Part shown: positions 39,287 through 47,587 of the stretch, in pieces | Numbering within the stretch: the first letter of the stretch is position 1 | Layout of the letters: every line of letters begins with the position of its first letter | Source: Natrinema amylolyticum | Lineage (GTDB): Archaea; Halobacteriota; Halobacteria; Halobacteriales; Natrialbaceae | NCBI RefSeq assembly: GCF_020515625.1 | Contig: NZ_JAIWPJ010000006.1 | Span: 62,001 to 126,000 of the forward strand | Direction of reading: 5' to 3' | DNA length: 64,000 nt | Notes under the pieces: generated by a model | Told to the model about the DNA's origin: nothing | Database searches by the model: none | The model's input: only the letters and a program-made list of their open reading frames with translations | Translations under genes and position numbers: made by a program

Positions 39287-39400
39287 ACCGCATCGGGGTC
39301 ACGCTCGAGGCGCTCGGCCCGCTGTTTCTGTGGAATTGCGGCCCCTCGAGGCGGTGTGGCGACGACTGGCGGGACGGGCGACCGTCGGAACGGCGAGAAG

Positions 39401-39473
39401 GTCCGGGTGCGAGAATCGAACTACGCGTCTCAGCCTGCACAGGCTGAAGGATGGCCACTACCCCAACCCGGAC
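39401..39473 (-). tRNA. tRNA-His-like gene (GUG), irregular: possibly a pseudo-tRNA
   Basis: On the minus strand a 73-nt cloverleaf begins GUCCGGG and ends CCCGGAC. It can be read as a seven-pair acceptor stem preceded by G(-1) opposite C73, the tRNA-His identity feature. The D arm (GGGU/AUCC) and T loop (UUCGAUU) are clear, and the anticodon GUG lies in the loop of a CAGCC/GGCUG stem. Two defects stand out: the anticodon loop has six nt instead of seven, and the T stem (GCG-U-AG against CUCGC) has a one-nt bulge. No CCA is encoded. Either this is a degenerate copy, or a single-copy gene with sequence errors. No other tRNA is visible in the window. Confidence 0.55.
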
Positions 39474-44570: not shown

Positions 44571-46826
44571 ATGGCACTCGAGGACAAGTTCCCCGATCGG
44601 TTCAGAGAAACGTACAGTGTAAAGATCGGCCTGATTTTCCTGTTGGTCATCGTGCTGACGATCGCCGTCTCGGCGCTCTTTTTCGGTCACGTCTCCGGCA
44701 CGGTCGGCCCGGCGGCGGAAGAGCACTTCAGCGATCGAACCGACGACCGCAGTGACGTCGCGGCGGCCTGGCTCGAGACCACTGCCGAAACGACGGACGG
44801 GCTCACCGCGGACGCGACCGTCCGAACGGGAACGTCCGACGAGATCAGTGACCGACTCGCGACGGTACAGTCCGCCCGCGAGGATCGAATCGCGGAGATT
44901 CACTATCTCGACGGCGACGGCGACGTCCTCGCGAGCAGTGCGGACGCTGCCGTCGGGGAGAACGTCTTCGAGACGGCCGGCGTACAGGGTGCCACCGACG
45001 GACCCAGCGCCACTCACGAGGCGATAACGAGCGACGAGTCCGTGTTCTCGTTCGTCTCGAGCGTCGAGGGCGACGACGAACGGTACGTGGCCGTCTCCGC
45101 CTCGACCGCCGCGTTCGCATCGGTCCTCGAGACCGAAGGCGAGTCGCGTCGCACGGTCGTCACGAACGCCGACGGCGAGACGATCGCGGCGGTCGGTCAG
45201 GTGGCGTCGGTCGGTGACGAGACGGTGCTCGCCGCGGTCTCACCGAGCGACGACGGCGTCTCGACCGGCGTCCCCGAGGGCTCCGAGACGGAGTTCGCGG
45301 CGACGGCGGCGACGATCGATGCCGGCGGCGAATCGCTGACGGTGACGACCTACGAGACGGCAGCGGCCGTCTACGGACCACAACAAACGGCGACGTCGTC
45401 GCTACTCGCAGTCCTCTTGCTCTTCGTCCTCCATCTCGGACTCGTCGGGGTCGTCCTCGGCGGCAACATTTCGCTGTATCTCCGCCGGCTCGCGAACAAG
45501 GCCGAACGGATGGGCGACGGCGACCTTTCGGTCGACCTCGAGACCGATCGGGTCGACGAGGTCGGGAGCCTCTACGCTTCGTTCGCGTCGATGCGGGACT
45601 CGTTGCGGGAGACGCTCGTCGATCTCGAAGACCAGCGCGAACGCGCCCGCGAGGCTCAGGAACGGACCGAAAAGCGCAACCGCGAACTCGAGGCCGAGGC
45701 CGAACGCTACAGCGAGGTCATGGCAGCGTGTGCCGACGGCGACCTCGAGAAGCGCTTGGAGCCCGAAACGGACCACGAGGCGATGGTGTCGATCGCCGAG
45801 GCGTTCAACGAGATGATCGCCGATCTGGAGACCGCGGTCGCACAGGTCAAGACGATCTCGGCGGAGGTCGCCAGGACGAGTACCGAGGTCCAGACCAGTT
45901 CCGACGAGATCCGACGGGCCAGCCAGGAGGTCAGCACGTCGGTCCAGGAGATCTCGGACGGATCCTCGAAGCAGGCCGAGGACCTGTCGGTGGCGACAAC
46001 CGAGGTCAAGGAGATGTCCGCGACCGTCGAAGAGGTCGCCGCCGCGACGAGTAACATCGCCGAGCAGTCGAGCCAGGTCGACGAACTGGCATCGGACGGT
46101 CAGCAGGCGGCGACGGAGACGACCGCGGAGATGCACGCGGCCAGCGACCGGACGGAAGCCGTCGCGGAGACGATCCGAACGCTGGACGAGGAGGCCGAAC
46201 AGATCCAGGAGATCGTCGAGTTGATCGACGAGATTGCCGGCCAGACCAACATGCTCGCGTTGAACGCGGCCATCGAGTCCGCGCGATCGGAGAGCGCCTC
46301 GAGCGAGAGCGACGGGTTCCAAGCCGTCGCCGACGAGGTCAAGGAACTCGCAGAGCAGACCCAGACGGCGGTCGAGGATGTCGAAATCATGATCGAATCG
46401 ATACAACAGCGAGCGACCGAGAGTGCGACGCAGATCGAGGAAGCCGAGTCGACGATCGGGTCGGCGACTGAACGAGTGGACTCGCTCTCGACCAAACTCG
46501 ACCGGATCGCGACGGAGATCGAACAGGTGACGTCCGGCGTCCAAGAGATCGACCAGGCGACGGACGAACAGGCCAGCTCCGCCGAAGAGCTGGCGACGAT
46601 CGTCCAGGACGTCGCGAGCGTCGCGAACGAAACGACGTCGCAGGCCGAGCAGGTCGCGGCGGCCGCCGAGGAGACGACCGCGACGATTACCGACGTCTCC
46701 GCCGAGGCGACGCGACTAGACGAGCGGGCCGCGGATCTCGCCGACGCCGTCGACGAGTTCACCGTCTCGTCGTCGCCGGCCGGTTCGACCGTGGCCCCGG
46801 CGGGACAGGGAGGTGAGTCGCAATGA
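44571..46826 (+). CDS. Halobacterial transducer (methyl-accepting) paired with an opsin
   Basis: The 751-residue transducer has TM1 (about 18-40), a large extracellular region of about 235 residues, TM2 (about 276-298), a HAMP domain (about 300-350) and a long cytoplasmic coiled coil. The signalling tip is clear: ELIDEIAGQTNMLALNAAIE (about 550-569), followed by GFQAVADEVKELAEQT. Glu/Gln pairs suited to methylation are visible along the coiled coil. It overlaps the opsin gene by ATGA, as in htr-sop pairs, so the two should form a complex that feeds CheA/CheW. The extracellular domain may bind a ligand and has no recognised family. The 296-bp upstream gap holds AT-rich promoter DNA. Confidence 0.92.
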   Translation: MALEDKFPDRFRETYSVKIGLIFLLVIVLTIAVSALFFGHVSGTVGPAAEEHFSDRTDDRSDVAAAWLETTAETTDGLTADATVRTGTSDEISDRLATVQSAREDRIAEIHYLDGDGDVLASSADAAVGENVFETAGVQGATDGPSATHEAITSDESVFSFVSSVEGDDERYVAVSASTAAFASVLETEGESRRTVVTNADGETIAAVGQVASVGDETVLAAVSPSDDGVSTGVPEGSETEFAATAATIDAGGESLTVTTYETAAAVYGPQQTATSSLLAVLLLFVLHLGLVGVVLGGNISLYLRRLANKAERMGDGDLSVDLETDRVDEVGSLYASFASMRDSLRETLVDLEDQRERAREAQERTEKRNRELEAEAERYSEVMAACADGDLEKRLEPETDHEAMVSIAEAFNEMIADLETAVAQVKTISAEVARTSTEVQTSSDEIRRASQEVSTSVQEISDGSSKQAEDLSVATTEVKEMSATVEEVAAATSNIAEQSSQVDELASDGQQAATETTAEMHAASDRTEAVAETIRTLDEEAEQIQEIVELIDEIAGQTNMLALNAAIESARSESASSESDGFQAVADEVKELAEQTQTAVEDVEIMIESIQQRATESATQIEEAESTIGSATERVDSLSTKLDRIATEIEQVTSGVQEIDQATDEQASSAEELATIVQDVASVANETTSQAEQVAAAAEETTATITDVSAEATRLDERAADLADAVDEFTVSSSPAGSTVAPAGQGGESQ

Positions 46827-47587
46827 TACCCGAACTTCAACTCTACCAGTTCGCGTTCTACGCGATGACGGTAGCGACCCTCTGCTTCCTCGTATGGGTC
46901 GCCCGGATGCCAGCGGGAAAACGGCGATACTACCTCCCCGTGCCGATCCTCTGCGGAACGCTCGCACTCGCGAACTTCGGCATGTCGATCGAACTGTTCC
47001 GCATCACGACGGCGGGCGGCGATCCGATCCCGATGACCCGGTACGCCGACTACGTGATCGCGACGCCGATCATGGTCTTCATCGCCGGGCTGATTGCCGG
47101 CGCGACGAGACGACAACTGGCCGTCGCGACCGTCCTGAGCGTGGCGTGGGTCGGGTCGTCGGCCGTCCGTTATCTCGTCGATCCCCCGTTGAACACCGTC
47201 GCTGGGATCGTCACGATCGTCTCTCTCGTGGGGATCGTCGTCCTAATGATCTGGCCGCTCACGAAACGCTCCGGCAAGCAAAGCGGTGAACGAGTCCTCC
47301 TCTACGGCAAACTCCGGAACCTGCTGCTCTTGCTCTGGGTGTTCTACCTCGTTATGGGGTTCGTCTCGCGACAGGGGCTGGGACTGCTCGACGCGTTCAG
47401 CGGTATCTTCGTCGCCGCGTATCTCGACATTCTCGCCCGGATCGGGTTCGGTGTCTTGGTGTTACGGGCGACCGACGCGACCGATCAGGTGATCGCGGGA
47501 CTCAGATCGACCGATAGCGGCGACGACGGCTCGGATGGCGTCACCCTCGAGCGGTCCGACGAGTCCGCGGTCGATCCGGCCGACTGA
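46823..47587 (+). CDS. Lysine-less microbial rhodopsin-like protein (sensory opsin fold, Schiff-base Lys replaced by Arg)
   Basis: This 254-residue protein has seven predicted membrane helices and aligns with bacteriorhodopsin and sensory rhodopsin I by its key helices: helix C TRYADYVIATP keeps R73 and the counterion D76; helix F keeps W172 and Y175; helix G YLDILARIGFG keeps D202. The retinal-binding lysine at the position of bacteriorhodopsin K216 is R206 (codon CGG, 47438-47440). No lysine lies elsewhere in helix G, so a normal retinal Schiff base cannot form. The proton-donor position (BR D96) is Ile. ATG 46823 overlaps the transducer stop. Opsins lacking the lysine have been reported as a class; this one may act as a non-photic partner of the transducer. 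Confidence 0.93.
   Translation: MIPELQLYQFAFYAMTVATLCFLVWVARMPAGKRRYYLPVPILCGTLALANFGMSIELFRITTAGGDPIPMTRYADYVIATPIMVFIAGLIAGATRRQLAVATVLSVAWVGSSAVRYLVDPPLNTVAGIVTIVSLVGIVVLMIWPLTKRSGKQSGERVLLYGKLRNLLLLLWVFYLVMGFVSRQGLGLLDAFSGIFVAAYLDILARIGFGVLVLRATDATDQVIAGLRSTDSGDDGSDGVTLERSDESAVDPAD

What the first reader, a model, noticed from the sequence alone, without database searches (positions are those of the whole stretch)
46823..47587. Sensory opsin without its retinal-binding lysine, coupled to a transducer
The protein keeps the seven-helix rhodopsin fold, the counterion aspartates (D76 and D202), R73, W172 and Y175, but the Schiff-base lysine is Arg206 (codon CGG). Going from a lysine codon (AAA/AAG) to CGG takes at least two base changes, so a single sequencing error is unlikely. 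Helix G holds no other lysine. Lysine-less opsins are known as a class, but their function is unsettled. Tight ATGA coupling to a full chemotaxis transducer suggests an active, non-photic or non-covalent-ligand sensor rather than a decaying gene: the frame is intact and codon use is normal.
Basis: partly seen in the sequence, partly recalled or inferred. Interest (0 to 1): 0.88.

Follow-up and report, generated by a model that had tools for sequence, protein, structure and literature searches.

The report
Retinal-less opsin paired with chemoreceptor
This salt-loving archaeon carries an intact relative of a light-sensing protein that has lost the part that holds its light-absorbing pigment yet stays tied by gene order to a chemical-sensing receptor; the class has been known since 2016, but this branch is unusual in keeping most of the signalling wiring.

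Summary
In detail: an intact 254-aa type-1 opsin with Arg206 (CGG, 47438-47440) at the Schiff-base lysine position, overlapping by 4 nt a 751-aa HAMP/MCP transducer. It is no error or relic. All 23 orthologues found, the window's included (Natrinema, Haloterrigena, one more genus), have Arg there, all have the transducer at the same overlap, and dN/dS is 0.127. It is the genome's only opsin, and beta-carotene dioxygenase (blh, retinal synthesis) is absent. Among the 23 genomes blh occurs in 7/7 with a second, Lys-bearing opsin and 0/16 without. The class is known: haloarchaeal opsin-related proteins (Becker et al. 2016), including Arg versions beside MCPs. New here is an Arg subclade fitting neither published group: its retinal pocket is rebuilt (W76Y, V108W, P175L, W178G, each 23/23), yet it keeps most of the SRII signal relay (R72, D/E75, Y174, D189, Y199, D201; T204 in 20/23 but Ala in the window). 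Its transducer has an HtrII-type TM2/HAMP and its own predicted dCache ligand-binding domain. Best reading: a non-photic subunit of a chemoreceptor complex built like SRII-HtrII; ligand unknown. The window's species has a che cluster but no detectable archaellin, so the output there is unclear.

The parts
46823..47587 (+). lysine-less type-1 opsin (haloarchaeal opsin-related protein, ORP), 254 aa
   Evidence: predicted seven-helix rhodopsin fold, mean pLDDT 80, best matches SRII/HtrII, deltarhodopsin, BR
47438..47440 (+). codon 206 CGG = Arg at the Schiff-base lysine position (K205 of NpSRII)
   Evidence: Arg in 23/23 orthologues with CGG/CGA/CGC codons
44571..46826 (+). cognate HtrII-type transducer, 751 aa: TM1, extracellular dCache-like domain, TM2, HAMP, MCP signalling domain
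   Evidence: HAMP and MCPsignal; TM2-HAMP region matches NpHtrII chains, E 2.7e-24; same architecture in the aligned orthologues, 747-785 aa
44688..45395 (+). extracellular sensor domain of the transducer, predicted double-Cache fold
   Evidence: AlphaFold2 model matches dCache domains of KinD, DctB, PctA, Tlp3 (Z up to 16.8, 191 residues, 2.5 A)
46823..46826 (+). ATGA start/stop overlap coupling transducer and opsin
   Evidence: same coupling in 23/23 orthologues
45432..45434 (+). His288 of the transducer, position of NpHtrII Asn74 that bonds SRII Tyr199
   Evidence: alignment; His in 16 and Asn in 7 of 23 aligned transducers

Best explanation
It is a functional, retinal-free opsin that acts as a membrane subunit of a chemoreceptor complex built like sensory rhodopsin II-HtrII. 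Shown: the protein lacks the retinal lysine, is conserved with Arg in its place, is always encoded with an HtrII-type transducer that also carries a predicted dCache domain, and persists in genomes that do not make retinal. Inferred: helices F and G dock on transducer TM1/TM2 through Tyr200 and Asp190 as in SRII; Arg206 sits between Asp76 and Asp202, replacing the protonated Schiff base as the buried cation; occupancy or protonation of the rebuilt pocket shifts helices F/G, moves TM2, and so tunes the output of the transducer to CheA. The ligand or stimulus is not identified.
For: 23/23 orthologues have Arg, with silent codon turnover (CGG 15, CGA 6, CGC 2), and 23/23 have the coupled transducer. 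omega 0.127. It is the only opsin of a 99.98% complete genome, and blh is absent there; in the family blh follows the Lys-opsins, not this protein: 7/7 against 0/16 (Fisher p 4e-6, not corrected for kinship). Pocket positions that are W76, P175 and W178 in 30/30 Lys-opsins are Y, L and G in 23/23, while R72, Y174, Y199 and D201 are 23/23, D189 22/23, T204 20/23 and D/E75 23/23. Tyr199 and Thr189 make the SRII-HtrII hydrogen bonds and Tyr174-Thr204 carries the signal (review PMC3274258). The transducer partner position of Tyr199 is polar (His/Asn) in 23/23. Two relatives' transducers (L041, L116) have no extracellular domain at all, so there the opsin-like subunit is the natural input. Purified ORPs of two other haloarchaea showed no 480-580 nm peak with retinal (PMC4915679).
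Against: No ligand, no interaction and no expression was tested. The transducer has its own predicted ligand-binding domain, so the opsin may add nothing to sensing. In the window's species and its two closest relatives Thr204 is Ala; mutations of Thr204 disrupt phototaxis signalling in SRII (PMC3274258), so the SRII relay may not work as such here. No archaellin is detectable in this genome, nor in 7 others of the 23, so taxis by archaella cannot be the output there. Acid at 75 with base at 205 is clade-bound, not an independent repeat.
Confidence: 0.58

Rival explanations
1. Passive or gain-setting subunit: the dCache domain of the transducer does the sensing, and the opsin is kept only because the HtrII-type TM helices need an SRII-like partner for folding, stability or a set signalling bias.
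For: The transducer has a complete predicted dCache domain; H. salinarum HtrII is known to be a serine receptor as well as a phototransducer (PMC3274258); the contact residues are well kept; Thr204 is lost in the window's own lineage.
Against: Pocket positions 76, 83, 108, 174, 175, 178, 201 and 205 are fixed across the clade although most do not face the transducer; related transducers without a sensor domain also have such an opsin.
Confidence: 0.27
2. Photoreceptor with a non-covalently bound retinal or another chromophore.
For: The fold and part of the counterion network are kept; a bacterium without known retinal genes builds functional rhodopsins (PMC7734400, abstract only).
Against: No lysine in helix G, ring-binding and polyene-binding aromatics replaced, Trp at 108; blh absent in all 16 genomes where it is the only opsin found; ORPs tested by others gave no pigment.
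Confidence: 0.05
3. Lipid scramblase or other membrane role of the opsin fold, unrelated to signalling.
For: Bacteriorhodopsin and actinorhodopsin scramble phospholipids without light or retinal (PMC5572738, PMC12805836).
Against: Strict 23/23 coupling to one transducer type and conservation of transducer-contact residues are not expected.
Confidence: 0.05
4. Decaying gene or sequencing error.
For: omega is about twice that of Lys-opsins in the same genus.
Against: Intact frame, omega 0.127, 23/23 Arg, normal codon use, conserved coupling.
Confidence: 0.02

Closest known systems
Haloarchaeal opsin-related proteins (ORPs), Becker et al. 2016, PLoS One e0156543 (PMC4915679)
   Same: Lysine-less opsins forming one side of the tree against Lys-opsins; W178 lost, D189 and Y199 kept; beside HAMP/MCP transducers; found where retinal genes are missing
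   Different: Fits neither group: Arg as in group A, but W76Y not W76D, Y174 kept not Leu, Trp108 not Met, and on the tree it lies with group B, whose members were described as hydrophobic at this position
Sensory rhodopsin II-HtrII (N. pharaonis; H. salinarum HtrII)
   Same: Seven-helix fold, operon with transducer, HtrII-type TM2/HAMP, contact and most relay residues; like H. salinarum HtrII the transducer also carries an extracellular sensor domain
   Different: No Schiff-base lysine, rebuilt pocket, about 25% identity to NpSRII
Rh-noK of betaproteobacteria and lysine-less freshwater FArhodopsins (PMC10308929)
   Same: Type-1 opsins without the lysine
   Different: Those sit in tandem with a normal rhodopsin or beside flotillin, without a transducer; this one is the sole opsin and has a transducer

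Membership tests
Type-1 (microbial) opsin fold, Pfam PF01036 | Sequence and seven-helix fold match | tested here: met
   68.9 bits, cut-off 24.6; Foldseek E 3.5e-10 to 4fbz, Z about 25 to SRII and BR
Retinal-binding rhodopsin | Schiff-base lysine in helix G | tested here: not met
   Arg206; 0 of 23 orthologues have Lys
Retinal-binding rhodopsin | W76, P175 and W178 of the retinal pocket | tested here: not met
   Y, L, G in 23/23; W, P, W in 30/30 Lys-opsins
SRII-HtrII signalling complex | Co-operonic transducer with HtrII-type TM2/HAMP | tested here: met
SRII-HtrII signalling complex | Tyr199-Asn74 type contact | tested here: met
   by alignment only: Tyr 23/23, His/Asn 23/23
SRII-HtrII signalling complex | Physical complex and light response | not testable with these tools
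   needs co-purification and spectroscopy
Haloarchaeal ORP (Becker 2016) | Lys-less and on the ORP side of the opsin tree | tested here: met
   100/100 branch against Lys-opsins
Haloarchaeal ORP (Becker 2016) | No retinal genes where no canonical opsin occurs | tested here: met
   blh 0/16; own CarR_dom hit is a single 112-aa protein, not a two-domain cyclase
ORP group A | Arg at position 205 | tested here: met
ORP group A | W76D, Y174L, Met108 | tested here: not met
   Y, Y, W in 23/23
ORP group A | Same clade as group A sequences | tested here: inconclusive
   Separate clades at 100/100 and 100/99, but a tree with both Arg groups together is not rejected, p-AU 0.20
ORP group B | Hydrophobic residue at 205 and Y174L | tested here: not met
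   Arg and Tyr, 23/23
ORP group B | Gly at 178, R72 kept | tested here: met
   23/23 each
Rh-noK | Tandem with a Lys-bearing rhodopsin | tested here: not met
   only opsin in the genome

The most novel reading that the evidence does not exclude
The clade is a chemosensory opsin: the former retinal pocket binds a small, probably anionic, ligand held by Arg206 (with Asp76/Asp202), and drives an SRII-type relay into a transducer that has a second, dCache sensor, giving a two-input receptor in which the opsin fold works like a ligand-gated GPCR.
Probability: 0.25. Interest if true: 0.85.

Novelty: new variant of a known kind. Interest (0 to 1): 0.5.

Why it matters
What lysine-less opsins do has been open since 2016. 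This clade changes the pigment pocket but keeps most of the known SRII output path, sits strictly with one transducer, and occurs in genomes with no other opsin and no retinal synthesis. That makes the question 'can an opsin signal without a chromophore' directly testable, because a response cannot come from a second rhodopsin, and the SRII-HtrII mutants tell which residues to change.

Tried and rejected
Sequencing error and pseudogene: rejected by 23 orthologues and omega. Viral copies: one scan of viral contigs found no relative. Association of base at 205 with acid at 75: the pairs look linked (no acid with a hydrophobic residue), but only one or two independent contrasts exist, so no test is possible. 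Convergent origin of Arg in two ORP groups: suggested by the tree, not established (p-AU 0.20). Link between the gene and archaellin within Natrinema: archaellin in 9 of 15 genomes with the gene against 3 of 14 without, p 0.06, kinship ignored. Looking for archaellum genes beside the che cluster by comparison with two relatives: no synteny in the stretches fetched. The genome-contig scan gave only seven loci. A conserved-pocket statistic was not attempted because the list of positions was chosen after seeing the alignment.

Full report
What is there. The ORF at 46823-47587 is intact, 254 aa, and a type-1 opsin by Pfam and by predicted fold (mean pLDDT 80; best PDB matches deltarhodopsin and SRII/HtrII). 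The residue aligned with the retinal lysine K205 of N. pharaonis SRII is Arg206, codon CGG. The preceding gene, 44571-46826, is a 751-aa transducer with HAMP and MCP domains, joined by an ATGA overlap.

Is it conserved? In 125 genomes of the family, 23 (the window's own included) carry an orthologue of 53% identity or more, after which identity falls to 38%. All 23 have Arg206 (codons CGG 15, CGA 6, CGC 2), and all 23 have the transducer at the same overlap. A codon model gives omega 0.127; eight Lys-opsins from the same genus give 0.058. The pairwise NG86 ratio to the closest orthologues is 0.18. This is a maintained protein.

Is it a retinal protein? No lysine lies in helix G. The pocket is rebuilt: positions that are W76, P175, W178 in 30/30 Lys-opsins are Y, L, G in 23/23; V108 is W and I83 is M in 23/23; F127 is N, G or T in most. 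Which positions line the SRII pocket is taken from PMC4915679 and otherwise from general knowledge of bacteriorhodopsin. The genome has no other opsin and no blh (the model finds blh in 63 of 125 relatives, most at about 1e-70, so the miss is meaningful). Across the 23 genomes, all 7 that have a further, Lys-bearing opsin have blh and none of the other 16 does. Kinship makes the p-value (4e-6) too small, but the pattern shows that this protein does not need retinal synthesis. A short single-domain relative of the lycopene cyclase domain exists (112 aa); it is not a full cyclase. The second opsins were sought by similarity to this protein, so distant pumps could have been missed in genomes other than the window's.

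What has been kept. R72, Y174, Y199 and D201 are 23/23, D189 22/23, D or E at 75 in 23/23, T204 in 20/23. In SRII, Tyr199 and Thr189 make the two hydrogen bonds to HtrII, and Tyr174-Thr204 passes on the signal (PMC3274258). Other Lys-less groups mostly lose that pair: group A has Leu/Ile/Phe there, most of group B Leu with Leu or Trp. The transducer's TM2-HAMP region matches NpHtrII (E 2.7e-24), and the partner position of Tyr199, Asn74 in NpHtrII, is His or Asn in 23/23. In the window's own species and two closest relatives Thr204 is Ala, so the classical Tyr-Thr bond cannot form there.

The transducer's own sensor. Between TM1 and TM2 lie about 235 residues that Pfam does not name. A predicted model (pLDDT 78, five sequences) matches double-Cache domains of KinD, DctB, PctA and Tlp3 with Z up to 16.8. 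Such domains bind amino acids or carboxylates in those receptors, but fold does not give the ligand. H. salinarum HtrII is likewise both phototransducer and serine receptor (PMC3274258). In contrast, two more distant ORP transducers (L041, L116) have TM1 and TM2 joined by a short loop and no sensor domain.

Phylogeny. With column 205 removed, all Lys-less haloarchaeal opsins lie on one side of a 100/100 branch against Lys-opsins; group A (30 sequences fetched, all Arg) is 100/100; the window's Arg clade is 100/99 and lies with group B relatives that bear Leu, Phe, His, Val, Met or Thr (92/84). A tree with both Arg groups together is not rejected (p-AU 0.20), so Arg may be the ancestral state of Lys-less opsins or may have arisen twice.

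Known or new. Becker et al. 2016 (PMC4915679) described 48 such proteins in 80 haloarchaeal genomes, with group A having Arg and 15/16 beside an MCP, group B having hydrophobic residues, transcription of eight of nine tested, no pigment with retinal in two, and the proposal of non-light sensing. By the tested residues it fits neither group, so I file it as a variant. I could not see whether their tree held Haloterrigena sequences of this clade.

Mechanism. Shown: conservation, coupling, absence of retinal synthesis, pocket change, kept relay residues. Inferred: complex formation through helices F/G; Arg206 as the buried cation between Asp76 and Asp202; modulation of TM2 and CheA by pocket occupancy or protonation. 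Main rival: the dCache domain senses and the opsin is a passive or gain-setting partner. Output: the genome has cheW, cheB, cheA, two cheC-like genes and cheD and seven MCPs, but no archaellin and no ArlJ over the cut-off. Eight of the 23 genomes lack detectable archaellin. In those the pair must control something else, or be left from recently lost motility while its frame is still intact.

Noticed in passing
L158 (G000:C2:840000-859990) and whole genome: The window's genome has a che cluster and seven MCPs but no detectable archaellin, while close relatives have 3-5 archaellin genes; what the Che system controls here is unclear.
   Followed up: partly
L159 1829-11741 (G000:C2:861828-871740): A type IV pilus-like cluster (T2SSF protein, DUF7289, DUF7261/bactofilin-like) lies a few kb beyond cheD; a possible Che output in a cell without archaella.
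   Followed up: no
L158 12812-17047: CheA is in an open frame of 1411 aa, with some 740 residues between the P2-like region and the dimerisation domain; unusually long linker.
   Followed up: no
L041 2418-4001 and L116: ORP-linked transducers without any extracellular domain (two TMs and a short loop), coupled to ORPs with Leu or Phe at the lysine position.
   Followed up: partly
L059 (two ORFs on the - strand): Two Lys-less opsin genes in tandem in one genome of the same family (G079).
   Followed up: no
window 39400-39472 (-): ARAGORN reports a tRNA with an undetermined type and a four-letter anticodon (gtgc).
   Followed up: no
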